From a virus, in the IMG/VR virus record IMGVR_UViG_3300017527_000131, positions 1-47,772 of that record: 47,772 nucleotides of DNA, one strand, 5' to 3'. The translations under genes were made by a program, and so were the position numbers. This document shows, piece by piece, positions 2,691-40,833 of the stretch. The notes beneath the pieces are model-generated. The model ran no database searches. It was not told where the DNA came from and was given only the letters and a program-made list of their open reading frames with translations. Within the stretch, counting starts at the first letter, position 1. The number at the start of each line of letters is the position of its first letter.

Positions 2691-4199
2691 ATGCCTACAG
2701 CACGAACAACACCGATACCAAGTAGCCAAAAGTTCCTTAGTGGCTCTATGGAGCGGATACTTAAAGACCGTATCAACGCAGTCGCTCAACAACGAGCGAG
2801 AGACGAGGGTACAAGTAGCGTAGACTCGTATAAGTACGCTGAGGAGACGCAAAGGATAGCTACGACGCTAATCAAACTTAACCTAACGAGTAAGAACAAG
2901 CTGTATATCAGGAATGTTACTACTCGTAACAATGGTATGATAAGTTTCCTACCGAAAGGACAGGAATGTCTCCTCACTTCTGACGGTAAGTGGAGCAGAC
3001 AAAATCGCGTTGACTGTAAAGCAGGGAAATTCCTGAACAAGGTCAAGAACGAGCGTGGATACGATTGGACTGCCCAAGATATTGAGCAATTTGTGAATTA
3101 CTATAAGTCAAAGACTATAGTAAAAGGCGAATTTTCAGTCGTGAAAGGCGAGGAAATTCGTGAGTGGTATCACTACTCAACGTATCAGGACGGTAGCGGT
3201 AGCCTGAATAATTCTTGTATGAAATACGACCAATGTGGCAAATATTTCGGAATTTATACAGATAACCCTGAAGTATCTATGATAGTGCTTGTGAATGACG
3301 AGGACAAACTCGTCGGTAGAGCGCTGTTATGGAATAACAGATATATGGATAGGGTGTATGGTAGCGACGACACCATAGTAGCATTTCACAATTTTGCTGA
3401 CGATAATGAATATATACCGATATTTCAATGCTCGGTAGGAAATATTAGCGTCGAGTTAAGCTATACAGAGTTTGACAGGTATCCGTATATGGATAGCCTG
3501 AGTCAAATCTTCAGCAGGGGAGTAGCAAATCATCACTCAAGCTCTATCGGTACTTATGTTGGTAGCGCACAAAGTACAGGAGGATACTTAGAGGGCAACG
3601 AGGATAATTATGACGAAGATTATTATTGCAGTTGCGAAGATTGTGGGTGTGGTATGTATGAGGACGATTACTATTACATCAACGACCAATACTACTGCTC
3701 CGAATGTATTTGCTATTCTGAGGTACACGGAGAGGACATACCCAGACATCAGGCGACGAGACTTCACGACGGAGATTATTGTTACGACGATTGTACCGTC
3801 GTACTCCATAACGGTAATTACGCTTGGCAAGACGACGATTACCTTATCGGGCTACCGAGTGGAGAATATGCGTTAGAGGACGAGGTAACATATTGCGACT
3901 ATTCCGAACAGCATTATTTAACTAACGAGGTAATACTGTACTCCCTTGACGACATCACTATTGTAAACCTAAATGTTGACGACTATTTACACGAGGAATA
4001 TGGCTTTAGGTTGATTGACTACAGTACGACGATAGACCACGCTGACGAGTCAGAAGTTCAAGACATAATCAAAAGACATCTTGAGGCGGACGATCACACA
4101 ACCGTACCGGTAGATGTATATATCAAACCTGCGACAGACACGAGACAACAAATCGAACTATTCGCAACAACCATAGGAGAATCGAATCATAATGGATAA
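2691..4199 (+). CDS. Large early protein with cysteine-rich zinc-ribbon region
   Basis: The 502-residue protein has an N-terminal basic helical part. It is followed by a domain (about residues 170-290) with GKYFGIYTDNPE and VGRALLW motifs, seen in uncharacterised proteins of many environmental phages. After it comes a Cys/Tyr/Asp-rich region (about 305-345: CSCEDCGCG and CSECICYS) that should bind one or two zinc ions. The third section repeats short D-G-x-Y and DDC units. AAAAGGAG gives a clear ribosome site. The stop overlaps the M20 peptidase gene by eight bases, so the two are probably co-translated and may act together. No enzymatic function can be assigned. Confidence 0.7.
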   Translation: MPTARTTPIPSSQKFLSGSMERILKDRINAVAQQRARDEGTSSVDSYKYAEETQRIATTLIKLNLTSKNKLYIRNVTTRNNGMISFLPKGQECLLTSDGKWSRQNRVDCKAGKFLNKVKNERGYDWTAQDIEQFVNYYKSKTIVKGEFSVVKGEEIREWYHYSTYQDGSGSLNNSCMKYDQCGKYFGIYTDNPEVSMIVLVNDEDKLVGRALLWNNRYMDRVYGSDDTIVAFHNFADDNEYIPIFQCSVGNISVELSYTEFDRYPYMDSLSQIFSRGVANHHSSSIGTYVGSAQSTGGYLEGNEDNYDEDYYCSCEDCGCGMYEDDYYYINDQYYCSECICYSEVHGEDIPRHQATRLHDGDYCYDDCTVVLHNGNYAWQDDDYLIGLPSGEYALEDEVTYCDYSEQHYLTNEVILYSLDDITIVNLNVDDYLHEEYGFRLIDYSTTIDHADESEVQDIIKRHLEADDHTTVPVDVYIKPATDTRQQIELFATTIGESNHNG

Positions 4200-5340
4200 A
4201 CAACTACTAATTGATACACTATCAGTCCAAACGCATACACGAGAGACAAAGCGTATGAGAAAATACATCAAGCGCTTTTGTAAGGCTAACGACCTTAAAT
4301 GTAAGCAGGATAACGGAAACCTTTACGTTACTAAAGGTAAGGCTGACATATATCCTTGCATTGTCGCTCATACTGATACTGTGCATAGAATAAAAAAGGA
4401 ACTCAACGTAGTTGAGCATAACGGAGTGTTGCTTGCTCTCGATAAAGATGTTCAGCAAACAGGAATAGGTGGCGACGATAAGTGTGGTATATTTATAGCG
4501 TTACATATGCTCCTGAAATACGACGCGTTAAAGTGTGCGTTCTTCAGAGACGAAGAGTGTGGCGGAGACGGGAGTCAACTTGCTGACCTAAAGTTCTTTG
4601 ATGATGTAAGTATGATTATCCAACCCGACCGCAGAGGTAATGACGAAGTGATACAAAATAGTGGCGGAGCAATACTTTTCAGCAAGGAATTGTTACATCA
4701 TATAGAGCCTCTAATGAAAAAGCATAGTCGAGAGTTGGGAAGTGGCTCGTTTACTGACTGTAACATTCTTACCGACCGTGAGGTAGGTATATGTACTATG
4801 AACGTAGGCTGTGGGTACTATAGAGCGCATACTTCTACTGAGGTCGTGGTAGTTCAGGACGTTAGCGACACTATTGACTTCATAGCGGAGTTGATTGACA
4901 TAACAAGCGACAAGCGTTGGTTACATAAAGACGACAGCTACAAAAAGGTATCAGGATTTGGCTCAGGTTGGGGAGGACACGCTTACGGTGGGTATTATGA
5001 TACCGAGTATGATACTGTTCAGGAATGTTACTACTGCGGAGGCTATCTTGCTACAGATAGAGAGCTGAATTGTGGAATTTGTGAAGATTGTATTGACTAT
5101 TACAGTATAGGACACGACGAGGTTATGGAGAGGTGTACGTCGAGAAAGGAATATCTTACAGAAATGTTTGGCGAATACGACGAGGACGGAGTAGCTGAGG
5201 AAGATGATAGTAACGAAGATCAAGAAAGTATTTGGGAGGAACACGCGAGGAAGATAGACGAAGAGACCGATAGAATTTGTGGAAAACCGTCAGATTATTT
5301 GTCCCGATATAAACAAAAAGTTAAGAGGCTTAGACTATGA
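4192..5340 (+). CDS. M20/peptidase-T-like zinc metallopeptidase with C-terminal zinc ribbon
   Basis: The order of metal ligands fits co-catalytic M20-type peptidases: H60-x-D62 (AHTDTVH), the bridging acid in GIGGDD (D95 or D96), the catalytic pair E121-E122 (RDEECGG), D146 (IQPDR) and H213 (RAHTS). Such enzymes hydrolyse small peptides or amide bonds with two zinc ions. The family usually has a dimerisation lid inserted between the fourth and fifth ligands; here the insert is short. A Cys4-type ribbon follows (C279, C282, then CGICEDC around 294-300), and the tail is highly acidic. It is translationally linked to the cysteine-rich 502-residue protein. A small-peptide or modified-metabolite substrate is possible but unknown. 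Confidence 0.7.
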   Translation: MDKQLLIDTLSVQTHTRETKRMRKYIKRFCKANDLKCKQDNGNLYVTKGKADIYPCIVAHTDTVHRIKKELNVVEHNGVLLALDKDVQQTGIGGDDKCGIFIALHMLLKYDALKCAFFRDEECGGDGSQLADLKFFDDVSMIIQPDRRGNDEVIQNSGGAILFSKELLHHIEPLMKKHSRELGSGSFTDCNILTDREVGICTMNVGCGYYRAHTSTEVVVVQDVSDTIDFIAELIDITSDKRWLHKDDSYKKVSGFGSGWGGHAYGGYYDTEYDTVQECYYCGGYLATDRELNCGICEDCIDYYSIGHDEVMERCTSRKEYLTEMFGEYDEDGVAEEDDSNEDQESIWEEHARKIDEETDRICGKPSDYLSRYKQKVKRLRL

Positions 5341-11793: not shown

Positions 11794-14700
11794 CTAAAAT
11801 TTAATTTGTATATCCTCGTCAGGAACTATCTCGTAGTTATAATCTTTTTCATAATCTTCAAACTTCCCTGTCATTTGTTGCATAGTATTCTTATGTCTCT
11901 CAATCAATGACAACTGCGCGCCAATCCTTTGTGCGCCTACCTGAAACTTATAATATTCTTTCCACTTCGCGTTAATCTTCTTTTGAATAAACGACCGTTC
12001 AATAGCAGAGTCAGCTTTGGATAATTCTTTTTCAAGTTCCTCAATGGTATTCTTTCCTAACAGCATTTCAGATTTAGCCTCAGCCTCTATAACTCCGAGC
12101 GCAGCCTTGAATAGCGGGTACGGATCTATTCCATTTTGAATAGCTGTAAAGTTTAGCGATTGGATTTCGTGTTCAATATCTTCAGGACTATCGTGCTTAC
12201 CGAAACCTTTGATCGCATATTCATATAGATCTATCAACTTCCTGCGCGTCGCTCCCTTTGAAGAGGGCATAGCAACGTCCAATAAGTATGACTCCTTATG
12301 AGGATATATCAAATTGCGAGTGCTGAATGGTAATGGCGTTTGTGCTATTGTTACCGCAGCCTGCCAAGTCCACGCCCAACCTTTAGCGTCCTTTAAAGCA
12401 TAGTTTTCAAATCCGCTTAGAGTGCTACCCGTAAATAATTCTATTGGTTTCTGCAATACAGGGTTAGCCTTTGCTCCAACTTTTTTAAGGAATGGTTTGC
12501 CAACTACAATCCCTCCGAAGTCAGATAGGAACAGCTCGAACAATTCTCTGAATTGTTTACCCCAACGTACATAGCGCTCAGTCCCGTCCTTGTATCTGCC
12601 TGCGAATAAGTGGCTCTTATGACCTACCACATTCCTGAACATTGTATCATCTTTCCAACCATAACTGTCCTGCTGATAATACTCTGGATTTTCCTCGCGG
12701 TCTCTGCGTCTAAAGAAAGCGTTTAACATATTCATACCGACACCGTAGTAAAGGAAAGCTCTCAACCAAAATGCTCCACCTATTTTCATTCGTAATCTTT
12801 TATTTGCTTTGTCGCTGTAGATAGCTCCTATACCTGCCGGAGAGAGTGCCTGCCTGATCGTAGATACCTGCCAATCAAAACTCAGTAACAATCGTTGAGC
12901 AGCCTTGACTCCTGACGGTTTCCTTATTGACTGCTGTATCTTCCCAACCTTTGGATTGAGCATAAGTATATCGAAGTTCTGTCCTCCAAAGGTATCATTG
13001 ACGAGCTGTGCTATTTCTCTTTTTGCGCGTACTAAGTCAGTACCGGTTACATCTTTTTTAATCTTTGCTACCTGAGACTCATACGCATACAGTTTTAAAC
13101 CGTCGTGTAACCAATCCCAAAGCGCGTGATCCCAACGCTCGTTGAATCCTGCCATAAGTTTAGCAACCCCGCCTCTAAAGAAATGATCTTTATGCTTATG
13201 AACTAAATTGTTTAGGAATTGTTGGATCTTCTGTACGGGAAAATCTGCTGACGCTCCCAACTGTAACCCGTGTATAACCCCGTCCTTTGCCAAATCAAGT
13301 TTAGTAAATGCAAGGTTATCTTTCTTAATGAATCCTCGATACACTAATGAAATAGGATTGATAATCTTTGCGGTTTGTTTAACGCCCATCATAGCAATTC
13401 CTGTTTCAGCAAGAGCGATATGGTGGAACAAACTGAGAGATAGGTTGGTTTTCTTTACAACTCCGCTTACCATATCATAGGCACGCCCAAGAGCATTAGA
13501 GTCGTGGACTTCAAGGATAACGTCGAGCGCGTCTTTGAGATCAGGGTGTACTGCAACGTCGACAGTAGACATTGTAGTTCCTTTGCCTTTGCCCGCAGAT
13601 CCAAACACAAGCCTGCGTAATGCAGGGTGGGACATACGTACCCAATTATCAGGAGCTTTACTAAGTTCTGAGATTAGTGGAACTCCCTCGACATTCATTT
13701 CTTTTACATCTTCAATAAACTGAGCGTTAGCCATAGCTCTGTATGTATTGCGACCGTGTAACATTATCAGGTTATTAATATCTAATTCTTTCGGAGCTAA
13801 ACCGTGTTCAGTAATACCCTCCATAAGTGTACCAATATATCTTTTCTTTAAGAACGGGTTAGTCCTTTGAAACCATTGAGTTACCGCTAAGTGTTTCTTA
13901 CCTTTCCACCTACCTACGTCCCATACGTGAGGCACATAGTTTAACTTCTGTTCATAGGTTAGATCCTCGTGGTACTCAGTCATTTCTTTCCATATATTAT
14001 CGAAGTGAGTCCTTGCCATATCAACGATTATGTTGAACTCTTTATCATTCTTCAGCTGTTGATAAAGTTTCTCAAGGTCAGGTCTGTTCAATACTTTAGG
14101 GACACCAGACTGCTCTATCAGGAATGGAATTACCTCTCTCTCTTCCTTAGTAGTGAGACTGTCTATCGTGTTTGTCAGGTCTTTAAGGTCAAGCATTTTA
14201 GAGGAGATCAATGCGTTGCGTAAGTATGCAAGCTCCCTAACCTGATAGCGATTTTGACTTCTAAATTCTTTTGACTCCTCAATGCCCTCCATAGCTTGAC
14301 GTTCAAGCTCGCGCTTTTTCATACGGTCGTCTAACTTCTTAACAACCTCAGATGTTGGTACAAGGTCATAGCTTATATCGGGAGTCTTTGCGCTGAACTC
14401 TCCGGTATTGTATAACGACTTAATAGCATTATCCTTATATACGCAGTAGGTATTAAACCCTGACTCGTTTAAGTAGGAGCTATCGTATCCGTACTTCTTA
14501 GCAATCTCTCCTACTATGTCCTGATCTACATAAGAAAAGATTTTAAGAGATCTATTCTCTGAGTGTGCGAGGAATAAATGATTTGAGTTTGAAGTCTCCC
14601 ACCCTGACATATCATAGTCAGTCTTACCTACAGCTGTTTGATCTTCTAACCATAGGTTATAATCGCGGACGAAACTCTCTTCTAACTCAGTAAGCATTTT

Positions 14701-17700
14701 CTCCGGTACGCCTGCCTCTCTCATATAGGATAGAAATTCTTTATAGTTACCAATCTCTTCCTCAGCCTGAACTTTAAACTTGATAGGATTTTTAATTGAT
14801 ACAAGCAACGGTAGTATATTCGCGCCCTTAATATCAGAACTGCTAAGATATTCGTGCATTGTAAACGGAGGCTTATAGTGAGGATCTATCTCTGTAAGCG
14901 CAGCAATCGCAGACCAATGAACACCGGTATACATCATAGCATACTCGCTCTCGTCTGTTATCCACCCTGCTACATTAGGCGAGGTATGGAACTTATTACC
15001 GTGTAACCCCTGATTGCGCGTCCCGTGATACATTATAACCGGATCTCCTAACTCGTCGATTAAGATAGATCCTTTATAGAACTGTTTAAATTTTGGATTG
15101 GTTGCAATTCCGTGTCGAACTTCGCGCATATCATAATCTTTTACAACCCGCTGCCCTTTATCATTCCTCTCTACAGGGTTATCTGTCCTATCAACAAAGG
15201 TATTCAATAGATCCTCGTCCGATATAAGCGCGTTACTCTCAGCGATTGCGTCCTGTTCTAAACTTAATTGATCCTGCTCCGTTATAGGCAGGGACTTCTT
15301 ATGTTTCTTTCTTTTGTTCTCAGTTAAATCCTGTTGCTGTTTCTTGACGGTCTTAGTGTTTTGTGCTTTTGGTTTATTAACAATAGGTTTCGTCTTGGTA
15401 TCAAGTGCCTCGATTGTTGCCTCCAACTTCGCAACCTCTTTTGCCACCCACTTATCAGCCTGAGTTTTTTTCTTCCCTGTAAGTTTTGTTGTTGAGCCTT
15501 TTAATGCAGAGATCTCCTGACGCATACGCGCCTCAGTAGGTTGGGAGGTATCTGTCTTATATCCTTTACTCCAAAGGAAGTGCTGTTCTGCAAAACCAAT
15601 GGTCTCAGCTATTCTATTCTTATCGCTTTCGAGAGATATAAATTTCTCCGTCATAACAGCGTCCTCTTCCGCTTCCCAATATTTTTCCTTACCTAATGTC
15701 TTTTCCCTGAAGATCGTCTTTAATAATATAGATCCGTCAGCGTCATACACATTAGTCGTAAGAGTATTCTTGCCCTTAACGAGCTGTATATTGTAGGTTT
15801 TACCTGCCACCTTAAACTGTTCAAATCCTTTTTTCTTCCACGTAGGAGACTTGTGTTCTGTAAACTTAGCAGGGTTGGGGTATCCTATCCATAAATCGCT
15901 AATCTTTACTGCTTTTTTCTTTTTCCCTTTAGCCTGTTGTTTTTTAGGAGTAACCTTTTTTGGCTTAGAAACTTTCTTACTTGGTGTCGTCTTAGCGCCT
16001 TTCTTATCTTTTGGTTTAGCTTTAACAAATTTCTTTTTCGCTTTTGGTTCTGCCTTATCCTCAATTAGTTCGAGGACATTTGTAAGTTTATATTTTTCTA
16101 TCTTACCACTTTTACCCTTTGCAGCAATATATGTATCGGTTATCTCTTCAACAACTATCGGATTAACATTATTGATTAATACTTTATCGCCAACTTGGAT
16201 TTTTTTACCGTTAAAATCTACAAGCGGTTTTGATTTCTTTTTGGGTTTAGTTTTCGGCTTGGTCTTAGACTTGGTAGTCTGCGGGTTTAACATCTGTGCT
16301 ATCCGCTTAGTTCTTTTCGCAGTAGGCTCATTAACAGATCTATCTAAATAGTCTACTAATTCCTCGTTTATCTTGCCCTCCTTAACTAATCGTGCAAAGG
16401 TTTGAGCGTCGCCAAACATAAGACTGAAATAATTTCTGACCTTATCTAATATCTTCCGTAACTCTTTATGGATTTTTCCTTTCGGCTCAACACCGGCAGC
16501 GTACCTGCGAGCTAAGGTACTAAACCATTCCTTGTTACTCTTATTGATTATGTCTCCAATGCTTGCCTCATACTCAGTTTTCCATTGTCCCACCTTAGTA
16601 TCCCAATCAGCGTCGTGTATACCCTCGTTATTATAGAACGCCTCGACTCTCTCCTCGACTACTGTCAATGGATTCGCTCCACCTAACACCTTAATTAAAT
16701 CCTTAGAGGCGTTACCTATCATAGCCTTTTCGTTAGAGCCAAGTATCTGAAACTGCTCAGGAGTCATTTTGATAGGATCAAATCCGTGTTCCTCGATCTT
16801 CTGCATAGCGTCTAACCACGTAATAGTACCGTCGTCTATATCGCTTTGTAGTGTACGAACTAAACTTGACAGCTCATATATCTGCTCGTCAGCTGTATCT
16901 AAATTCTCAAAATGTTTAACCGCGTCCTTAACTGCTGTATCAATATCTTTTTGAATAAGCGTAATTCTATCCTGTGTCTGCTCGCTTATCGTACCTAAGT
17001 CCCGCGTGATCGCTACCCACTCAGGCGTACCATAATCAAACTGCGAGCGCTTATCCTGTAATACCCATAACTGCGCATTTAACTGTCTAAGCGTTGGATC
17101 AGGAATGTTCTTAGTATTCTCAAGTCCTGCCTTTCCCTCTTCAGTTTGCATTTCTGCTTTGAGTTGGTCTATCTGCTCGACGGTTATATTGTCAGGTATG
17201 ACAATGTTGTCAGCAAGTACCAAGTTCCCTGCTCCCTCAACCTTACCACTCTTCAGGGTTTCCCTTAAAGTTTCTAATTGTTGGATAGTATTCTCAGTAT
17301 TCTCGCGGTTACGTAGATCTAACTCAGCTATCTCTTTTTCTGATACGACGTGCTTTCCCTCTTCAATAAATTTTATTGCCTGTTCAACTTCTTTATCCGC
17401 AGCAGCTCGTACTTCCTTGATAGTGTCATCAATGTTTGTGTCTATCCGTTTCTCAACTTTCTTCTGTACCGAGCGCGTATACATCTGCATAGGTAGCGTA
17501 GTAACTGACGACGCTCCAAGTCCTACAGCAAACGCGTCGAATGAGCCACTCCAAGCGTTAAGTTCTTTATTAACACCTGTATAGATGTCGTTTAAATTTT
17601 GTGTTACCTGTGTTGCAAGCTCTTCAACCCCCTCTATAACTCTGTCTGTTAATATAACTCCCTTATTTTTTAGTGAGCGTACAAAGGATTTTCCGAAAGC

Positions 17701-19155
17701 CTTATTGAAAGCCAACCCGCCTGTCTTAGATCCAAAGCGTTTTACAAACGCTCCATACATCTGACCTAATCTACCTGTACCTAATGTTTCAAATACACCC
17801 TCAGCTCCACCGTGTATAATCGCGTTTATTTGTTTGGTAATCATAGACGTATCGTCATAAGTACCATAATGTTCTGCTAACTGTTCATTAAGACCGTCAA
17901 TCATTTTTTGCTGTTTTATATCGGTAGGCTCTCCGTGAGTTCTACTTCGCTGTTCTTTCTGCCTGTTCTCTTCGTCAGCTGATAGCTCTGTAAACTTATC
18001 CCCTGCTGACATAGTGGATACTGTACCCATAATTGCGGGTAAGGGTACACCTGCATAGGCACTTGCCATTATTGCTAACTGCATAGGTATAGCCTCAGCT
18101 ATAGACTGAGAAGTTTGAGCAAGAGCGCGCATATAGTTACCCTCTTTGATGTCTCCACCAATAGAGTTGTCGAACTGTACCATTTCTGCCTGAGCGCTCT
18201 TTTGAATATTGTCATACAGCTGATACATTTTGTTACCGGTTGTAAGCACTTTAGGCGCGTGTCTCTCCATATTCTTGAACAATTCAGGGTTAGCTCTGCC
18301 GGTTACAGCGAGAGGTTTTAACCAAGAATTGCCGGGCAGTACCGACATAGCCTCTAATATATCTGCGTTCTCAGGTACTAATGATAATAAGTTTTGAGGT
18401 AGATACGCCATTTCTGCTACAGCTGTTGGAATTTGTGATACGCCTTTCCAAAACCACGCTGTACCTGATACTGCTCCCTGATATAAGCCTTTTCCCCACT
18501 CTTTAATTGAGATCTCTGCCTCGTCCTTTGCTAATATATTCGCGCGGATCTCTTCTTTTGATAAACGGGGAGACTTCGGAGGTACAAAGGTAGATTCGGC
18601 AGCTGCTTGTTCTGTTTCAATATTGTTAAATACTGCGTCCTCTTTCATTCTTCTCGCTCTGTCCCAACCTAAATAGTCCTTTTCAGACATAGCTGTACCG
18701 TTTTTAGTGTCTAAATAAGTACCGTCCTCCTGTGGAACTACGCGATTAGGGTGGTAATCATCTTTAAATTCAGACGGAAAGTGAGCGTTAGGCTCTCTAA
18801 TTCGTGCCATTTCCTCTTCATTCCACCTGTATTTATCATAATAACCGCGATAATCGTACATATTCTTTGGATCGTCAGGGTTTTGATTGAGGTATTTAGC
18901 TCCTGATATCTCACTATAAAACGATTGGAAGTCCTCTTCGGGATTTTTAATAGGCTCAGTCTTTGGCTCTCGTATTAATGCGTTAGGATATTTCTGCTTG
19001 AACAATCCTTGCATATCTTCAGGTACATATAGATCCTTTTCATCAGACGTATACAATATACCGCGTTGAGCTTTAGGATATTTCTGTAGAAATGCGTCTA
19101 ATTTTTCGTCAGCAACATCTACCTTTTGACCGTCAACATAGTACCGCTCAGGCAT
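11794..19155 (-). CDS. Giant polyvalent virion protein with ADP-ribosyltransferase-like domain
   Basis: The 2,453-residue protein is the last gene of the late operon and is probably packaged and injected with the DNA, as known for polyvalent proteins. The N-terminus has FxQKYPxA-type repeats and the DYRGYYDKY...HFPSEFKDDYHP element common to such proteins. Amphipathic segments (about 225-390) and coiled coil (about 560-760) follow. Next come Lys-rich linkers around a small KOW-like beta module (about 955-1090) and a separate domain to about 1205. An ART-like domain (about 1345-1600) shows VIMYHGT, GWITDESEYAMMY and NAIKSLYNTGEF. The FNTY segment lacks the glutamate expected in NEY-type ART motifs, so activity is uncertain. 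The C-terminal third contains LLLSFDWQVSTIRQ (about 2085) and a hydrophobic helix (about 2120-2143), typical of phage polyvalent C-termini. Confidence 0.75.
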   Translation of the reverse strand: MPERYYVDGQKVDVADEKLDAFLQKYPKAQRGILYTSDEKDLYVPEDMQGLFKQKYPNALIREPKTEPIKNPEEDFQSFYSEISGAKYLNQNPDDPKNMYDYRGYYDKYRWNEEEMARIREPNAHFPSEFKDDYHPNRVVPQEDGTYLDTKNGTAMSEKDYLGWDRARRMKEDAVFNNIETEQAAAESTFVPPKSPRLSKEEIRANILAKDEAEISIKEWGKGLYQGAVSGTAWFWKGVSQIPTAVAEMAYLPQNLLSLVPENADILEAMSVLPGNSWLKPLAVTGRANPELFKNMERHAPKVLTTGNKMYQLYDNIQKSAQAEMVQFDNSIGGDIKEGNYMRALAQTSQSIAEAIPMQLAIMASAYAGVPLPAIMGTVSTMSAGDKFTELSADEENRQKEQRSRTHGEPTDIKQQKMIDGLNEQLAEHYGTYDDTSMITKQINAIIHGGAEGVFETLGTGRLGQMYGAFVKRFGSKTGGLAFNKAFGKSFVRSLKNKGVILTDRVIEGVEELATQVTQNLNDIYTGVNKELNAWSGSFDAFAVGLGASSVTTLPMQMYTRSVQKKVEKRIDTNIDDTIKEVRAAADKEVEQAIKFIEEGKHVVSEKEIAELDLRNRENTENTIQQLETLRETLKSGKVEGAGNLVLADNIVIPDNITVEQIDQLKAEMQTEEGKAGLENTKNIPDPTLRQLNAQLWVLQDKRSQFDYGTPEWVAITRDLGTISEQTQDRITLIQKDIDTAVKDAVKHFENLDTADEQIYELSSLVRTLQSDIDDGTITWLDAMQKIEEHGFDPIKMTPEQFQILGSNEKAMIGNASKDLIKVLGGANPLTVVEERVEAFYNNEGIHDADWDTKVGQWKTEYEASIGDIINKSNKEWFSTLARRYAAGVEPKGKIHKELRKILDKVRNYFSLMFGDAQTFARLVKEGKINEELVDYLDRSVNEPTAKRTKRIAQMLNPQTTKSKTKPKTKPKKKSKPLVDFNGKKIQVGDKVLINNVNPIVVEEITDTYIAAKGKSGKIEKYKLTNVLELIEDKAEPKAKKKFVKAKPKDKKGAKTTPSKKVSKPKKVTPKKQQAKGKKKKAVKISDLWIGYPNPAKFTEHKSPTWKKKGFEQFKVAGKTYNIQLVKGKNTLTTNVYDADGSILLKTIFREKTLGKEKYWEAEEDAVMTEKFISLESDKNRIAETIGFAEQHFLWSKGYKTDTSQPTEARMRQEISALKGSTTKLTGKKKTQADKWVAKEVAKLEATIEALDTKTKPIVNKPKAQNTKTVKKQQQDLTENKRKKHKKSLPITEQDQLSLEQDAIAESNALISDEDLLNTFVDRTDNPVERNDKGQRVVKDYDMREVRHGIATNPKFKQFYKGSILIDELGDPVIMYHGTRNQGLHGNKFHTSPNVAGWITDESEYAMMYTGVHWSAIAALTEIDPHYKPPFTMHEYLSSSDIKGANILPLLVSIKNPIKFKVQAEEEIGNYKEFLSYMREAGVPEKMLTELEESFVRDYNLWLEDQTAVGKTDYDMSGWETSNSNHLFLAHSENRSLKIFSYVDQDIVGEIAKKYGYDSSYLNESGFNTYCVYKDNAIKSLYNTGEFSAKTPDISYDLVPTSEVVKKLDDRMKKRELERQAMEGIEESKEFRSQNRYQVRELAYLRNALISSKMLDLKDLTNTIDSLTTKEEREVIPFLIEQSGVPKVLNRPDLEKLYQQLKNDKEFNIIVDMARTHFDNIWKEMTEYHEDLTYEQKLNYVPHVWDVGRWKGKKHLAVTQWFQRTNPFLKKRYIGTLMEGITEHGLAPKELDINNLIMLHGRNTYRAMANAQFIEDVKEMNVEGVPLISELSKAPDNWVRMSHPALRRLVFGSAGKGKGTTMSTVDVAVHPDLKDALDVILEVHDSNALGRAYDMVSGVVKKTNLSLSLFHHIALAETGIAMMGVKQTAKIINPISLVYRGFIKKDNLAFTKLDLAKDGVIHGLQLGASADFPVQKIQQFLNNLVHKHKDHFFRGGVAKLMAGFNERWDHALWDWLHDGLKLYAYESQVAKIKKDVTGTDLVRAKREIAQLVNDTFGGQNFDILMLNPKVGKIQQSIRKPSGVKAAQRLLLSFDWQVSTIRQALSPAGIGAIYSDKANKRLRMKIGGAFWLRAFLYYGVGMNMLNAFFRRRDREENPEYYQQDSYGWKDDTMFRNVVGHKSHLFAGRYKDGTERYVRWGKQFRELFELFLSDFGGIVVGKPFLKKVGAKANPVLQKPIELFTGSTLSGFENYALKDAKGWAWTWQAAVTIAQTPLPFSTRNLIYPHKESYLLDVAMPSSKGATRRKLIDLYEYAIKGFGKHDSPEDIEHEIQSLNFTAIQNGIDPYPLFKAALGVIEAEAKSEMLLGKNTIEELEKELSKADSAIERSFIQKKINAKWKEYYKFQVGAQRIGAQLSLIERHKNTMQQMTGKFEDYEKDYNYEIVPDEDIQIKF

Positions 19156-19159
19156 AGGA

Positions 19160-20956
19160 CTACTCCCACACCGATAAGTCGTTAGGAACTTCGCTATATT
19201 TATCTATCTGTAAATGTCCCTCCGTCGGCAGATAAGGCACGCCCTCAAAGCTCGGTGGAACATAATTTAATAGAGACTCAGGGTTTAATACACCCGGATA
19301 GTCGGACGCAGCGAGGATCTTCATAACATTTTTATTTAATTCCTGCTCGTACCTATTGCGGAGATAACGAACTTTCTCTTTTGAATTGTAATTATCAAAG
19401 GCGTTCCGTGTTCTCTCGTCTATGGAGTCGGGAGATACGCCTATCAGCTCAGTAAATCCCGGTAGCGTCATAGGTATATCCGCGATTTTAGCGACCTCGT
19501 GGATATGTGCCTGTACTGTAGCGAGATTACTGCCAAGTTCTTCTACGTCTGTATAGTTCAGGACGTTTAGTTTGTCTCTCAAATATTTAACTGACTCGTG
19601 ATTATTATTCTTACCAACCGTCAGCGATAGAGTATTTCTTTCCATATGACTAAGCGCCACACTCTCAGCTATTTGCTTACGCTCAGGAGAGAGGTCTTTA
19701 ATCGACGCAAGTTTCTGTTTATATAAACCCGCAACAAACGCTGCTTCCTTTTTAGTGATACCTTTTTTATCCATATGTTTCAATAAATCTTCAGCAGGTC
19801 TCGTGTTATCAAAGAAATTGTCATAAATGCTCTTCTGAAATGAAGTTAGCTTATTCCTATTCATTGAGATTTCTTCCTTAGCCAATGCCATTCTCTCTTG
19901 AGGGGGTAGGTCTGACTGTGAAATAGTTTGTAATCTTCTCGCGTAACCGTCAGGATCAGTTTCTCTGCTTGACTCAAGTCCGGTATAAAGATTCATATAG
20001 TTATCAACGTATTTGTCCTGTTTTGCTTTGTAATCAAGTACATCAATGAACTCCTGTCCCTGTTTGGTAGTGATATTCCCTGCCTCAACTTCTTTATAAA
20101 TATCCTCTTCCGTTACAGTCTCAGGATCTATTTGATTACGAGCCTCGAACTGTGCGATTTCGTTTTTAACCTCAATAGCTTTCTGTTTCATTTCTCTGCC
20201 CTGAGCAATCCCAACCTGACCTGATTTAACCATAGCGTCTATAGCGTCGGCAGTAGGAATGTTGGACGGATCATATACATTAAGCGCCTGATCTATACCC
20301 CTTGTGCGACCTAATTGATTAACATATTCATCTAAATTATCAAAACCTGCGTTAGCTGCGACCTGTTTAAAATCTTTTAAGTTCGTATCATCTTCAATAA
20401 GATCTAACGCTTTAGCCTTTTGCATAGTATTTGAGGCTGCCTTTGCTGTTTGTGCCACTTGAGAGGCTGCTGCTGCTCCAAGACTTAACCCTGCCTGAAG
20501 TACCTGACCTCTGTGCGCGCTCTTGGCTTGAGCATATTGCTGTTTCCCTTGCGACTCAATCTGTCCTTTCTGAAGTTCAGCCTGAGCAATAATTTGTTGT
20601 ATCCTTTTATTCTCTCCGTACTGAGCTTTAAATGCTTTTTCTCCTGCGACAGATAGAGCCTCTAATGCTTGTTGATTAGTACCCATTCGCATTTGAGCCT
20701 CAATGCCACCGCCCGGTTTGTTCCTTGCTACAAACTGATCCGTCCCGCGATTAGCTCTTTGAGACTGCTTACCTATTTGTCTAAGTGCGGGTTGCATTAC
20801 CATATGGCTTATGCGTCCCTCAAAGGCTTGACCTTTTAAATTATTGATGTATCTATCCATATACTTCGTGTCATATTGATAGTCTTTCTTTCTCGGTTTG
20901 TTAAGTAGTGTTCCCGCTAAGGACGCAGCTGCCGGTAATAATGCCCATAAACTCAT
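19160..20956 (-). CDS. Internal virion/ejection protein
   Basis: The ATG at 20956 was chosen because it overlaps the upstream stop as ATGA; an in-frame GTG at 20968 is the alternative. The 598-residue protein starts with a short hydrophobic Ala/Leu segment (WALLPAAASLAGTLL). A long helical, Gln/Ala-rich part follows (about 60-180), including AGLSLGAAAASQVAQTA, then charged helices to the end. This composition, and its place beside the giant polyvalent protein at the end of a podovirus late operon, matches internal core or ejection proteins that form a trans-envelope channel. No enzymatic motif is seen. Confidence 0.6.
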   Translation of the reverse strand: MSLWALLPAAASLAGTLLNKPRKKDYQYDTKYMDRYINNLKGQAFEGRISHMVMQPALRQIGKQSQRANRGTDQFVARNKPGGGIEAQMRMGTNQQALEALSVAGEKAFKAQYGENKRIQQIIAQAELQKGQIESQGKQQYAQAKSAHRGQVLQAGLSLGAAAASQVAQTAKAASNTMQKAKALDLIEDDTNLKDFKQVAANAGFDNLDEYVNQLGRTRGIDQALNVYDPSNIPTADAIDAMVKSGQVGIAQGREMKQKAIEVKNEIAQFEARNQIDPETVTEEDIYKEVEAGNITTKQGQEFIDVLDYKAKQDKYVDNYMNLYTGLESSRETDPDGYARRLQTISQSDLPPQERMALAKEEISMNRNKLTSFQKSIYDNFFDNTRPAEDLLKHMDKKGITKKEAAFVAGLYKQKLASIKDLSPERKQIAESVALSHMERNTLSLTVGKNNNHESVKYLRDKLNVLNYTDVEELGSNLATVQAHIHEVAKIADIPMTLPGFTELIGVSPDSIDERTRNAFDNYNSKEKVRYLRNRYEQELNKNVMKILAASDYPGVLNPESLLNYVPPSFEGVPYLPTEGHLQIDKYSEVPNDLSVWE

Positions 20957-23421
20957 TTTTCGCCCCACATTTTAATATCAATTAATATATTTCTTATTAT
21001 GTTAGCTCCCTCAACAAGAATAGACATAGTTCTGCCTCTTGATTTTGCAAGGGTTACTTGTCTTATTTCGTTTGGAACTACGCTACTTTTTTTGTCCTCT
21101 ACCTGCGTCTCTATGTCATTTACAACACGATTAACTCTCGTAGTAACATCAACACCGCTCCCCACAAAGTCCACTATCCACCGTTGGAATACTCCTTTTT
21201 TGATATAGAAGTTTTTGGTTTCAATTTTGGTCTCCGCGAGACAATATGATGTACCGGGATATTGCTGTAATTGCAGGTCAGAGTCTATCCATACGTTATA
21301 ATTCTTGTCTAAACTTCCACCTGCTAAGGTTATCGGTATATCAAGAATATTCAGTCCGTCAAATGTCGTCCACTTCCCTTTGTCTATATGATAAGCGTAT
21401 GATCTTGTCTGATCAATTATTCTTCCCCATACTTGTTGGTAGCCTAATGCTCCTGAGTATTTTGCCCACTTGACAAAGAAGAGTCCTCCCGTTAAAGGAA
21501 TACCCTCTTTATCCATACGACAGTCGTCCGTTGTCGCTACTTCCAACGTATAGGATAATAAAGTAACAACAGTATCGTTTGCATAACCATATATAACAGT
21601 AAGCGCCTGTGAGTTAGAATAATCTGAATATACCAACATAAACCCTGAGTCTGTACCGTCGCTCATAACTATAGGACGTGTTCCTGAATTGTTTACGCCT
21701 GCTAATTGCGTTGGAGTCCCTATTGTAACAGTCATATCGTCAACCGCTACAGGATATACACCCAAATCATAAGCTCCACCTCCAAAATAAGTCCCAACCC
21801 ATTGAGCGCATATAGCTCTCGTTGCAGAGGCTATTGTCATAGCTGTATATGAAGCGTTTGCAATAAATCCGGGATCTACTGAAGTCCCAAATGTAAGCAC
21901 GTCCCCTGTACCCGGATATTCTGCTACTGTATATTTATTACCTTGAGGAGCAAGGTTTTGATGATGTGTTATTAATAGTCTGTTGGTCTCTATTTGTTTT
22001 GCCTGAACAGAGGTAACTACTCCTCCTGAAATCCACGTTTGTACTGCGCCAAGAGTGATTACATTCCCCGCAACAGTCCCTACTTGATACTTCATTCCGC
22101 TTGCGTCAGCGCCAAAGACTACAAATTTTGTCGTTCCGTTTAGCCTTGCAATAGATGTTCGATATATTACAGTAAGGTCTGTAAGGACAGGAGTATGAAG
22201 TGTTATTGTAGTCCCTGAAACAGTCCCTACTACAATAGCTGTACCACCAATAGCTACCTGAGTATAACAATAAAGGAACTTGTCGTCCTCCCAACCAAAG
22301 ATAGACGTAGAACTTCTCCTTACATTTACAACGGTTTCAGGAAGTCCCTCAACTGATGATAAGAGTGTCTTGTCTATTGTGCTGACAATTATTTCATCAT
22401 CATCATAAGTCCCGCCATTTTGATTATTGGCAGTTACTACCTTTGCAGTTGTGTCTGTTTCTCCTATTACCCCAATATCAACAGCTGCCGCTTTCTCGGC
22501 ACTTGCAACAATAGCTCCCTTATCTAATGAATATAACTTCTCTCCAACAGCAAGGGTTTGTTTGTGTAGAATATATTGGTTTCTGATAGAGTTGTAAAAC
22601 GCCATATACTCGTCGTCGCCCACATCATCAATATTGATAATATCTTTACTAATTAACTCCATACCATTTTTATTCCACTTCCATACACCTTTCTCGCTTT
22701 GTCCGAATAGAGTTTCCCCCGCAAGAACAAGCGTTTTGGCGTGCATTAGTCCGAGATCTTTAAACTCTTCAATAAGATTGTCGGTCTGTGCGCGCCATTG
22801 TCCCGTACTAACGTCTGAGGTCAATATGAAACGATTGATAGTATTTCGCGTGAATAGCAAAAATGAGTTGTCATACTTAAACTGTAAGAATGACGGAGCA
22901 GGCATTATTCTAACTATAGGCTCTTTTAGATCCTTATAGTTAAGATCCGGTACTGCAATACCATTATAGTTCGTCCACCTAAATCTATGTGATACTTCCC
23001 TGTAGTCAATGTCTTTTGTCTCTCCAAAAGAAACATTTATATTCCTTTGATATGTATAGGTTTGCACTACTTGTACGAGGTCAACCTCGTCGTATAGGTG
23101 TACCGTGTCATTTGTAATCGCAATAATGTTAGTAACCACAACATCTTTAGTATAGTCGTCCCACAGATGAACTGTATCAGCTGTAGATTGAGCCAAAGAC
23201 GGTTGCCCTGAAACCCAAACAATCGGAGTCTCTTCGTATAGATGTACTTCATCATTTTGATATTTACTTAATGTCCCAACTCCTCCCGTTACGTCTGCGC
23301 TATCAACGTCGTCGTACAGATGTACCGTGTCCTCTTGAGTTAGATCTACGGGAGAGACTTGATCCGACCAATTATCCCGTAGATGTACCGTATCATTTTG
23401 ATATTGTGGTGTTAATGCCAT
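20953..23421 (-). CDS. Beta-rich tail protein with five N-terminal TVHL repeats
   Basis: The 822-residue protein opens with five units containing a (N/D/E)D(T/E)VHL(Y/W/R)(D/E) core, at about residues 11, 32, 58, 83 and 106, each followed by a short variable strand. The rest is beta-rich with WKWNKNG, QWRAQTD and Gly/Thr-rich segments, resembling propeller-like tail nozzle or stabilisation proteins of short-tailed phages. It could also be a receptor-contacting tail component. It is coupled to the ejection protein downstream and lies two genes from the second nozzle-like protein at 24559. The assignment is by composition and position only. Confidence 0.55.
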   Translation of the reverse strand: MALTPQYQNDTVHLRDNWSDQVSPVDLTQEDTVHLYDDVDSADVTGGVGTLSKYQNDEVHLYEETPIVWVSGQPSLAQSTADTVHLWDDYTKDVVVTNIIAITNDTVHLYDEVDLVQVVQTYTYQRNINVSFGETKDIDYREVSHRFRWTNYNGIAVPDLNYKDLKEPIVRIMPAPSFLQFKYDNSFLLFTRNTINRFILTSDVSTGQWRAQTDNLIEEFKDLGLMHAKTLVLAGETLFGQSEKGVWKWNKNGMELISKDIINIDDVGDDEYMAFYNSIRNQYILHKQTLAVGEKLYSLDKGAIVASAEKAAAVDIGVIGETDTTAKVVTANNQNGGTYDDDEIIVSTIDKTLLSSVEGLPETVVNVRRSSTSIFGWEDDKFLYCYTQVAIGGTAIVVGTVSGTTITLHTPVLTDLTVIYRTSIARLNGTTKFVVFGADASGMKYQVGTVAGNVITLGAVQTWISGGVVTSVQAKQIETNRLLITHHQNLAPQGNKYTVAEYPGTGDVLTFGTSVDPGFIANASYTAMTIASATRAICAQWVGTYFGGGAYDLGVYPVAVDDMTVTIGTPTQLAGVNNSGTRPIVMSDGTDSGFMLVYSDYSNSQALTVIYGYANDTVVTLLSYTLEVATTDDCRMDKEGIPLTGGLFFVKWAKYSGALGYQQVWGRIIDQTRSYAYHIDKGKWTTFDGLNILDIPITLAGGSLDKNYNVWIDSDLQLQQYPGTSYCLAETKIETKNFYIKKGVFQRWIVDFVGSGVDVTTRVNRVVNDIETQVEDKKSSVVPNEIRQVTLAKSRGRTMSILVEGANIIRNILIDIKMWGEK

Positions 23422-38976: not shown

Positions 38977-40833
38977 TTATCCTTGTGTTGTAGGGTTAAT
39001 ACTCGATTCTAAAGCCTTATTTTCTAAGACCTGTTTAGCCTTGTCTAATGACTCAGCCTCTTCGCTACCCGCTTTCTGTTTTTCCAACTCCTCATTAAGT
39101 ACCACAAGAAATTTATCCACATTCTTGATCGGAGCTTGTTCTACCAATACCGCCACTAATCTTGAGGCAACCGCAGGGTTAGCCTGTATGATTAAATTAT
39201 AAATAGCGAGCAGTTTTTCAAAGTTATCCTCTTTGGTTGTAATATTTTGCTCTCCCTCGTCCAATTCAACAAGTACGGAGGGATTTCTAACATCATTAAA
39301 TACTTCTCCCAAGATAGAGAGATTGAGCAATTCGTCCTGTAATTCGCCCTCTTTATTTTTAATAACAACAGGTCGGTCTAAATCAGAATAGACTTCCCCA
39401 ACATTGTTAATAAAATCAACAGCTAAGGCGTATCTCATATTAGAAAGGTTTTTAAAGTATGGATTGATCGCTGTTGTTGCGCGTTCAACTTTACTTTCAA
39501 ATAATGTGCCTGATTCTCCACTCTTTTGAGATTCTCCTCTCATAGCTGAATTAATCAGCGTTATTCTATCGGAGAAACCTAAAGACATATCAGTAGTTAA
39601 TAATACTTCTGACGGGATATTACCGGGAGCAAATCTCTCAGGTTTTTGTTGCATATTTTTTAACGGTACAACTAAATTGGTTTTGCCTGCCTCTTCCTGT
39701 AAGAGCTTAATTGCCTCTTCCTCGCGTTTGTCAATAAAGAAACCACCGCCCAATATCTGCGTGATTAGATCTCTTTGTTGAGATTTGGTTTTATTAACGT
39801 CGTCCTGAATATCTTTTAATAGCTCTACGAGACTTAAATTCTCAGGTAAGGCGACATTAAAGGCATAACTGAATACATTGAACATATCAAACCTGCAAAC
39901 ATTTTGGTCAATATCTTCATCAATAGCAACCACGTTGTCGAAATACGGGATCAGCGTGGACTTACGCATAACTTGAGTTGTGCTTGTATCAATAATCTTT
40001 AAACTTGGATCTTCCTGTTTAGCGGACTCATAATCGGCAGGCTGATGTTCTGAATAATCGCCCTCAGCATTATGACACCGGTATACAGATCTATTCTCTT
40101 TCCTCTGTAATTCAAGAACGAGAACAAGGTCATTTTCTTTATTATAAATATTTGTTAGCGGTTGTGAATAATCTCGATCGTAAAATCTCCTCACGGTCTT
40201 TTGAAGTTTGTCGTACCACTTAACTTCTTGCTCGCTTTTGATTAAACTTGAGGCGAGACCTGCTAAATCATACGTATCAATAACTTCGTCGGCAGGATAC
40301 CAAGCCTCTTTAAGCAGATAGCGACATTTATTTAACATAAAATCATTCGCTAATGTTTCGGGATCTGCATAAACCCGCATATTATTCGCCACTTCATAAA
40401 AGAAATCTAAATAACCCTCGTCGGTCATTTTAATATCGCGCTGTACCCAACCTCCACGATTGGCGATTAGTCCGTCAAAGAGCGCTGCCTGTAGTTTCTC
40501 CTCAAGATTTTGCTCGTCAATAACTCTTTCCCAACGACCTTGCAAGAGATCTACGGTATCAATATCAGTCCCATTTCTTTTTGTCGGTTTAAAAATTGCT
40601 TTGCGCTTGTATAATTGTTCATTACCAACAATAGCCAAGAGTGCCGGTATCAAAATATTATATTTCAATAACGGTTTATTATATTTTTCAGCTTTTGCTT
40701 TTTCGGTATCCGTATATGGCTCGTTGATAACATAGCGCATATTTTCTTCGGACTTCTCTGTATTGTCAGCATAGGAGTCTCTAAGATGTTTATAAACTTT
40801 TATAATTTGATCTGCGTCTTTTGTTAATGCCAT
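38977..40833 (-). CDS. Portal protein
   Basis: I chose ATG 40833, which overlaps the TerL stop as TAATG; ATG 40848 would add five residues. The 618-residue protein follows TerL and precedes the scaffold. It contains a helical N-terminus (AEKYNKPLLKYNILIPALLAIVGNEQLYKRKAIFKPTKRNGTD region), GGWVQRDI, MRVYADPETL and a long C-terminal helical part, matching P22-type portal proteins. Twelve copies form the DNA entry vertex and bind terminase. Confidence 0.8.
   Translation of the reverse strand: MALTKDADQIIKVYKHLRDSYADNTEKSEENMRYVINEPYTDTEKAKAEKYNKPLLKYNILIPALLAIVGNEQLYKRKAIFKPTKRNGTDIDTVDLLQGRWERVIDEQNLEEKLQAALFDGLIANRGGWVQRDIKMTDEGYLDFFYEVANNMRVYADPETLANDFMLNKCRYLLKEAWYPADEVIDTYDLAGLASSLIKSEQEVKWYDKLQKTVRRFYDRDYSQPLTNIYNKENDLVLVLELQRKENRSVYRCHNAEGDYSEHQPADYESAKQEDPSLKIIDTSTTQVMRKSTLIPYFDNVVAIDEDIDQNVCRFDMFNVFSYAFNVALPENLSLVELLKDIQDDVNKTKSQQRDLITQILGGGFFIDKREEEAIKLLQEEAGKTNLVVPLKNMQQKPERFAPGNIPSEVLLTTDMSLGFSDRITLINSAMRGESQKSGESGTLFESKVERATTAINPYFKNLSNMRYALAVDFINNVGEVYSDLDRPVVIKNKEGELQDELLNLSILGEVFNDVRNPSVLVELDEGEQNITTKEDNFEKLLAIYNLIIQANPAVASRLVAVLVEQAPIKNVDKFLVVLNEELEKQKAGSEEAESLDKAKQVLENKALESSINPTTQG

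What the first reader, a model, noticed from the sequence alone, without database searches (positions are those of the whole stretch)
11794..19155. 2,453-residue polyvalent virion protein with an ART-like domain that may lack the usual catalytic glutamate
The region around residues 1345-1600 has YHGT, an aromatic GWIT segment and NAIKSLYNTGEF, typical of ADP-ribosyltransferases in polyvalent phage proteins. The segment where NEY is usual reads FNTY. The protein also has an internal KOW-like module between Lys-rich linkers and a further domain (about 1090-1205) I cannot place. It probably enters the host with the DNA and could modify host proteins at the start of infection.
Basis: partly seen in the sequence, partly recalled or inferred. 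Interest (0 to 1): 0.65.

Follow-up and report, generated by a model that had tools for sequence, protein, structure and literature searches.

The report
Phage giant protein with ADP-ribosyltransferase cargo
A short-tailed phage makes one very large protein, probably carried in the virus particle and injected with its DNA, in which a conserved carrier end is joined to an exchangeable ADP-ribosyltransferase domain; the missing glutamate that looked odd is in fact absent from about three quarters of such phage domains.

Summary
The ORF and motifs are real: minus strand 11794-19155, 2,453 aa, last gene of the late operon of a podovirus with P22-like portal. Residues 1347-1601 are an ART-PolyVal domain: Pfam gives 31.0 bits (curated cut-off 31.2), a profile built without the window gives 88 bits (best of 1,000 shuffles 6.5), and AlphaFold gives an ART-like strand order. 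The active-site positions read His1377, Trp1398 (usual Tyr), Tyr1409 and Thr1569 (usual Glu).

The missing glutamate is not unusual: only 28 of 119 phage ART-PolyVal domains have Glu there, including members well above Pfam's cut-off that have Ser, Val or Gln. Asp1558 and Lys1579, nearly invariant in the family, are present.

Residues 1605-2430 form a conserved C-terminal module found in 48 other viral giants but in no Pfam, PHROGs or PDB family. What stands before it varies (ART, GGDEF, nuclease, pyrophosphatase, acetyltransferase); ART is scattered over its tree (7 changes for 7 carriers). Its predicted fold matches C-terminal parts of "large polyvalent proteins". A polyvalent protein with a solved precedent, cyanophage A-4L gp27 (pre-ejectosome, ART-like motifs), is the best reading.

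Virion presence, injection and catalysis are inferred, not shown. New member of a known kind.

The parts
11794..19155 (-). Giant polyvalent protein gene, 2,453 aa, ATG start, GGAG-type ribosome site; start lies 4 bases after the end of the upstream gene
17296..18378 (-). N-terminal region, residues 260-620; relatives L066, L039, L056; no family match
16309..16866 (-). Residues 764-949: conserved domain shared with L051, L066, L075, L064, L091 and with orthologues L106, L108, L113, L114; possibly a degenerate zincin-type metallopeptidase (EERVE where HEXXH would stand, conserved EWFS): inference, no profile or fold test
16051..16215 (-).
15541..15888 (-). Residues 1090-1205: unplaced domain; weak NlpB/DapX match only
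14353..15117 (-). ART-PolyVal domain, residues 1347-1601, with a long insertion (about 1465-1545) relative to most relatives
15025..15027 (-). His1377 in strand 1 (YHGT); His in 122 of 125 relatives
14962..14964 (-). Trp1398 in strand 2 (GWIT), at the position of the usual Tyr
14929..14931 (-). Tyr1409, at the conserved Tyr after the strand-2 helix
14482..14484 (-). Asp1558 (GYD motif before strand 4); Asp in 119 of 120 relatives
14464..14466 (-). Glu1564, five residues before Thr1569; candidate displaced acid (hypothesis)
14449..14451 (-). Thr1569 in strand 5, where Glu stands in 28 of 119 relatives
14419..14421 (-). Lys1579; Lys in 117 of 119 relatives
11866..14343 (-). Conserved C-terminal module, residues 1605-2430, proposed carrier; 48 other viral giants; model pLDDT 84.7
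19160..20968 (-). Neighbouring late gene, 602 aa, candidate ejection protein; relatives beside the orthologous giants in L108 and L109
20953..23421 (-). Neighbouring late gene, 822 aa, candidate ejection protein; relative in L108

Best explanation
This is a phage polyvalent protein. Its C-terminal ~825 residues are a conserved carrier that most likely docks the protein in the internal core (pre-ejectosome) of the virion. The part before it is exchangeable cargo, here one ART-PolyVal domain plus less clear modules. On infection the protein would be ejected with the DNA, and the ART domain would use host NAD+ to attach single ADP-ribose groups to one or more host proteins, favouring early takeover or blocking defence. 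Shown here: ART-family sequence and predicted fold, loss of Glu at 1569, carrier conservation, cargo exchange, late-operon position. Inferred: packaging in the virion, injection, NAD+ binding, mono-ADP-ribosylation, host target. Catalysis without the strand-5 Glu would rest on His1377, Trp1398 and Tyr1409 for NAD+ binding, with another acid (Asp1558 or Glu1564) or the acceptor itself helping, as proposed for PARPs that lack the Glu.
For: ART profile and shuffle test. AF2 model, pLDDT 79, with ART-like strand order; Foldseek's best PDB chains are A-4L gp27, then the ADP-ribosylating anti-CRISPR AcrIF11 (6kyf), tankyrases and MbcT; VIA Z 7.0-7.5 to PARPs. Near-invariant His, Asp and Lys kept. 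C-terminal module in 48 other viral giants, at or near the C-terminal end, behind varied cargo; ART scattered on its tree: 7 changes for 7 carriers, at least 5 forced by supported branches, and 7 for 8 when truncated copies are left out. BFVD matches, E 2.6e-19 to 5e-4, many to proteins named large polyvalent. Orthologous phages keep RecT, exonuclease and two neighbouring proteins. A-4L gp27 is chain B of the pre-ejectosome structure 9k3a and has YHGT...GTYFS. Literature: polyvalent ARTs are predicted to be packaged and injected (PMC5512222).
Against: No direct evidence of virion presence, injection or activity. The fold matches are weak: no PDB match at E below 0.001 and Z below 8. The Foldseek superposition on A-4L gp27 is poor (TM 0.31, rmsd 19 A), gp27 scores only 4.8 bits against the ART profile, and I could not see whether its ART-like region is resolved. 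Loss of Tyr and Glu together may mean loss of activity. Of the closest orthologues by gene neighbourhood (L106, L108, L109, L113, L114), none carries the ART.
Confidence: 0.5

Rival explanations
1. Pseudoenzyme: the ART domain is virion-carried and injected but no longer transfers ADP-ribose; it binds NAD+, ADP-ribose or a host protein and blocks it.
For: Two of the canonical H-Y-E positions are changed (Trp1398, Thr1569). The strand-5 residue varies freely across the family (E 28, V 20, S 15, T 13, N 7, W 7, Q 7 of 119), which fits weak selection on a catalytic role there.
Against: His1377, Asp1558, Lys1579 and Tyr1409 are kept. ARTs without the Glu can be active: AcrIF11 works with H-F-H-D (PMC12421852), and some PARPs without it retain activity (PMC10789625).
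Confidence: 0.27
2. The ART-fold domain is a structural part of the ejection machine, as the ART-like part of A-4L gp27 could be, and has no enzymatic role in the host.
For: A-4L gp27 with ART-like motifs is built into a solved pre-ejectosome.
Against: The ART domain is absent from the giants of most orthologous phages, which keep the C-terminal module; a needed structural part would be conserved.
Confidence: 0.12
3. The domain degrades NAD+ (glycohydrolase or phosphorylase, like MbcT) rather than modifying proteins.
For: MbcT is among the best Foldseek matches; some ARTs are known to act on NAD+ itself (PMC9503650).
Against: Matches to protein-modifying ARTs (AcrIF11, tankyrases) are equally good or better.
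Confidence: 0.08

Closest known systems
Polyvalent proteins of phages and conjugative elements (Iyer et al. 2017, PMC5512222)
   Same: Very large multidomain phage protein beside virion genes, swappable effector domains including ART, conserved non-enzymatic regions
   Different: Its conserved C-terminal module (1605-2430) is in no Pfam or PHROGs family; only structure comparison links it to annotated large polyvalent proteins
ART-PolyVal domain, Pfam PF18760 (Tox-ART-HYD2 clade)
   Same: YHGT strand 1, aromatic strand 2, GYD, x-Y-[VI]-V-[FY]...IKS..N.G.F signature
   Different: Trp for Tyr in strand 2, Thr in strand 5, ~80-residue insertion, score 0.2 bits under the curated cut-off
Giant proteins of podoviruses ctQRb9, ctEw122 and Limnohabitans phage DC33 (2,792-3,209 aa)
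   Same: ART-PolyVal in a giant late gene after the ejection proteins; exonuclease and RecT genes on the opposite strand nearby
   Different: They carry LPD22 near the N-terminus, Glu in strand 5, tail fibre genes after the giant, and no significant sequence match outside the ART domain
Anabaena cyanophage A-4L gp27 (PDB 9k3a chain B)
   Same: Large late protein of a podovirus, component of the pre-ejectosome, ART-like YHGT...GTYFS motif
   Different: 1,717 aa, no detectable sequence similarity to the window protein by phmmer
Phage T4 Alt
   Same: Works like: virion ART injected with the DNA, modifies host proteins at the start of infection (PMC5512222)
   Different: R-S-E clade, small dedicated protein, not polyvalent (PMC5512222)

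Membership tests
Polyvalent proteins (Iyer et al. 2017) | Large single polypeptide combining several distinct domains | tested here: met
   2,453 aa with ART domain, conserved 764-949 domain and conserved C-terminal module
Polyvalent proteins (Iyer et al. 2017) | Effector domains exchanged between relatives | tested here: met
   Cargo before the same module differs; ART needs 7 changes for 7 carriers on the module tree, 7 for 8 with truncated copies left out
Polyvalent proteins (Iyer et al. 2017) | Encoded among virion genes | tested here: met
   Last gene of a ~31-kb same-strand block that begins with terminase, P22-like portal and capsid
Polyvalent proteins (Iyer et al. 2017) | Packaged in the virion and injected | not testable with these tools
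   Needs mass spectrometry of virions and an infection assay
ART-PolyVal, PF18760 | Score at or above Pfam's curated cut-off (31.2 bits) | tested here: inconclusive
   31.0 bits for the segment, 16.7 for the whole protein; 88 bits on a session-made profile without the window
ART-PolyVal, PF18760 | His in strand 1 | tested here: met
   His1377
ART-PolyVal, PF18760 | Tyr in strand 2 | tested here: inconclusive
   Trp1398 by model and profile alignment; relatives have Y 56, F 28, W 18, H 10 of 126 at this column
ART-PolyVal, PF18760 | Asp in strand 5 (as published, PMC5512222) | tested here: inconclusive
   The section read gives no residue number; the only near-invariant Asp in my alignment is Asp1558 just before strand 4 of the model, and strand 5 itself has Thr1569
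ART-PolyVal, PF18760 | ART fold | tested here: inconclusive
   Model pLDDT 79 with ART-type matches (AcrIF11, MbcT, PARPs) but none at E below 0.001 or Z of 8
H-Y-E PARP/diphtheria-type ARTs | Catalytic Glu at the start of strand 5 | tested here: not met
   Thr1569
R-S-E ARTs (T4 Alt) | R-S-E active site | tested here: not met
   The strand-1 residue is His1377, and Thr1569 stands at the Glu position
Zincin metallopeptidase of polyvalent proteins (for residues 764-949) | HEXXH motif | tested here: not met
   EERVE at the corresponding place; Glu kept, both His absent

The most novel reading that the evidence does not exclude
Phage ART-PolyVal domains, this one included, are active transferases that no longer depend on a strand-5 glutamate: the acid is supplied elsewhere, either the near-invariant Asp1558 or a loop Glu five residues upstream (Glu1564 here), giving an unrecognised catalytic layout (His-Trp-Thr here) in a very common class of injected phage effectors.
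Probability: 0.2. Interest if true: 0.6.

Novelty: new member of a known kind. Interest (0 to 1): 0.38.

Why it matters
It places the protein in a known class and shows how that class is built: a conserved ~825-residue C-terminal module, absent from Pfam and PHROGs, that keeps its place while the effector in front is exchanged. If the module is the packaging and ejection signal, it would be a handle for finding injected phage effectors by position alone. The strand-5 survey also corrects a natural misreading: lack of Glu does not single this domain out, and whether Glu-less ART-PolyVal domains are enzymes is an open, directly testable question about a widespread family.

Tried and rejected
Whole-protein searches found nothing in phages (tblastn; blastn) or in viral contigs with single-sequence patterns. 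The portal as bait failed. In one search the rows for segments without hits (N3, KOW, X, C1, C3, Call) reused a stale alignment and are ignored. An early alignment put His1413 at the strand-2 position; the model and the window-free profile put Trp1398 there, so I dropped the idea that the window belongs to the His-strand-2 / Ser-strand-5 subclass. The displaced-Glu idea is suggestive only: Glu at -5 in 21/87 domains without the strand-5 Glu against 1/26 with it (p 0.023, one of eight offsets tried, so not significant after correction), and the domain tree is too poorly resolved to test it with relatedness taken into account. PDB searches of the carrier found no clear match: Foldseek best E 0.13, best profile hits a designed protein and enzymes, VIA best phage match 'core proteins of the bacteriophage E1004' Z 6.7 over 168 residues, too weak to rely on. 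Carrier tblastn against deposited phages gave nothing significant. PHROGs and NCBIfam did not place the protein. Searches for papers on the A-4L or E1004 structures found none.

Full report
WHAT IS THERE. The window is a whole 47,772-base virus record with no tRNA genes. An uninterrupted ORF of 2,453 codons occupies 11794-19155 on the minus strand. The gene is the last of a same-strand late block that runs from 42455 down to 11794 and includes a terminase, a P22-type portal (PF16510, E 2.9e-38) and a PF13252 capsid (E 3.8e-15); RecE-like exonuclease and RecT genes face it from the other side. Its ATG lies 4 bases after the stop of the upstream gene and follows a GGAG.

THE ART DOMAIN. Against Pfam, segment 1340-1605 scores 31.0 bits for ART-PolyVal (E 4.9e-7; curated cut-off 31.2); the whole protein scores 16.7. 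tblastn of this segment against phage records found weak relatives (Tunturi_5 over 95% of the segment; ctEw122, ctQRb9, zth2-2 over parts). A profile of them recovered 80 viral loci and, after local iteration, 128 aligned domains. Rebuilt without the window, the profile scores the window domain at 88-96 bits, against 6.5 for the best of 1,000 shuffles. The relatives were gathered partly by likeness to the window, so this tests chance and not independence. AlphaFold2 with 88 sequences gives pLDDT 79 and pTM 0.77: strand 1 at 1374-1379 holds His1377, strand 2 at 1397-1400 is GWIT, a strand follows Asp1558, and the next strand, 1567-1572, holds Thr1569. Foldseek's best PDB chains are 9k3a_B, the anti-CRISPR 6kyf, tankyrases and MbcT, but none at E below 0.001; VIA gives Z 7.0-7.5 to PARPs, which is not decisive alone. 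6kyf is AcrIF11, an ADP-ribosyltransferase whose key residues are given as H-F-H-D instead of H-Y-Y-E (PMC12421852).

IS THE MISSING GLUTAMATE UNUSUAL? No. Among 119 domains aligned through strand 5, Glu occupies the Thr1569 position in 28; Val has 20, Ser 15, Thr 13, Asn, Trp and Gln 7 each. Domains well above Pfam's cut-off lack it: L086 (93.6 bits) has Ser, L075 (79.8) Gln, L091 (70.9) Val. By contrast His1377 (122/125), Asp1558 (119/120) and Lys1579 (117/119) are nearly invariant and are present in the window. The published description of the family names His in strand 1, Tyr in strand 2 and Asp in strand 5 (PMC5512222); the section gives no residue number, so I cannot say which Asp is meant. 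Trp at the strand-2 position, as in the window, occurs in 18 domains, none of which has Glu in strand 5 (0/18 against 27/96, p 0.006, relatedness not corrected). A loop Glu five residues upstream of the strand-5 position, Glu1564 in the window, is commoner in Glu-less domains (21/87 against 1/26) and commonest in the Ser/Thr class (14/27 including the window), but the p value of 0.023 does not survive correction for eight offsets and could not be tested on the tree. I treat it as a hypothesis. Enzymes of this fold can work without the Glu: the review PMC10789625 explains retained activity in some PARPs by the acceptor taking over its role.

THE REST OF THE PROTEIN. Alignment A4, residues 1880-2160 with two relatives, pulled out 47 viral loci. 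In these the similarity runs over about 1605-2430 at up to 50% identity; a profile finds the module in 48 proteins other than the window, at or near the C-terminal end. It is in no Pfam, PHROGs or PDB family at useful significance. Its model is mostly helical (pLDDT 84.7, pTM 0.82) and matches BFVD entries, many named large polyvalent proteins (also one named ART-PolyVal-like, one LT_GEWL, one RelA/SpoT), at E 2.6e-19 to 5e-4. What precedes it changes: among 22 giants Pfam finds inorganic pyrophosphatase, PBECR nucleases, MutS domain I, RadC, SNF2, Eco57I, GGDEF, GNAT and ART-PolyVal. On a tree of the module ART-bearing proteins are scattered: 7 changes for 7 carriers, at least 5 forced by supported branches, and 7 for 8 when truncated copies are left out. 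Five loci (L106, L108, L109, L113, L114) share RecT, exonuclease and two more neighbours with the window and are therefore the same phage group, yet have other cargo. Residues 764-949 recur in four of these and in five further giants; the pattern EERVE plus EWFS suggests a zincin that has lost both His, an inference from the alignment alone. The KOW-like module and domain 1090-1205 remain unplaced.

IS IT A VIRION PROTEIN? Not shown. Indirect support: late-operon position; the same place, after the lysozyme or peptidase ejection protein, of ART-bearing giants in ctQRb9 and ctEw122, with a matching gene order in DC33; and cyanophage A-4L gp27, which is chain B of the pre-ejectosome structure 9k3a and bears YHGT...GTYFS at 1424 onward. 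Its similarity to the ART profile is weak by sequence (4.8 bits) and by superposition on the window model (TM 0.31), and I could not check whether that part is resolved.

HOW IT MOST LIKELY WORKS. The carrier packs the protein in the internal core; the protein leaves with the DNA; the ART domain modifies host proteins with ADP-ribose from NAD+, as T4 Alt does. My estimates: polyvalent protein 0.9; virion-carried 0.8; injected 0.7; ART domain active 0.55. The main rival is an inactive, binding-only ART. The target is unknown.

NOVELTY. The class, the domain family and the proposed use are published (PMC5512222; also PMC9503650). New here are this divergent member, the sequence family of the C-terminal module with its exchanged cargo, and the count showing that the strand-5 Glu is a minority state. 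I file it as a new member of a known kind.

Noticed in passing
L035, L038, L064, L070, L086, L020, L034, L061 (ART domains): A subclass of phage ART-PolyVal domains has His at the strand-2 position together with Ser at the strand-5 position (8 of 9 His domains against 7 of 105 others, Fisher p 1e-7, relatedness not corrected), usually with N..EGxGDSY[IV]AF.
   Followed up: partly
L018, L016, L039, L023, L047, L054, L063, L078, L082, L095: Many giants carry two to four ART-PolyVal domains in one protein; the window protein has one.
   Followed up: no
L098:4798-10521: The related giant has a GGDEF-like domain as cargo, and an extra stretch with HEIGHH inside the C-terminal module where the window has a short loop.
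   Followed up: no
PQ492659.1 (L014): Limnohabitans phage DC33 is recorded as Inoviridae, but the record is 39 kb and its giant is 66% identical over 1,300 residues to that of the tailed phage ctQRb9: probably a taxonomy error in the record.
   Followed up: no
window 15541-15888 (-): Domain 1090-1205 has a weak match to NlpB/DapX (PF06804, E 0.0048, below cut-off).
   Followed up: no
window 4192-5340 (+): Gene with a strong PHROGs match to a phage 'peptidase' family (phrog_4191, E 1.2e-51) but only a weak Pfam M42 match.
   Followed up: no
window 38977-42455 (-): Portal and terminase are very divergent: no deposited phage matches the portal by tblastn, and the best terminase hits are under 30% identical.
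   Followed up: partly
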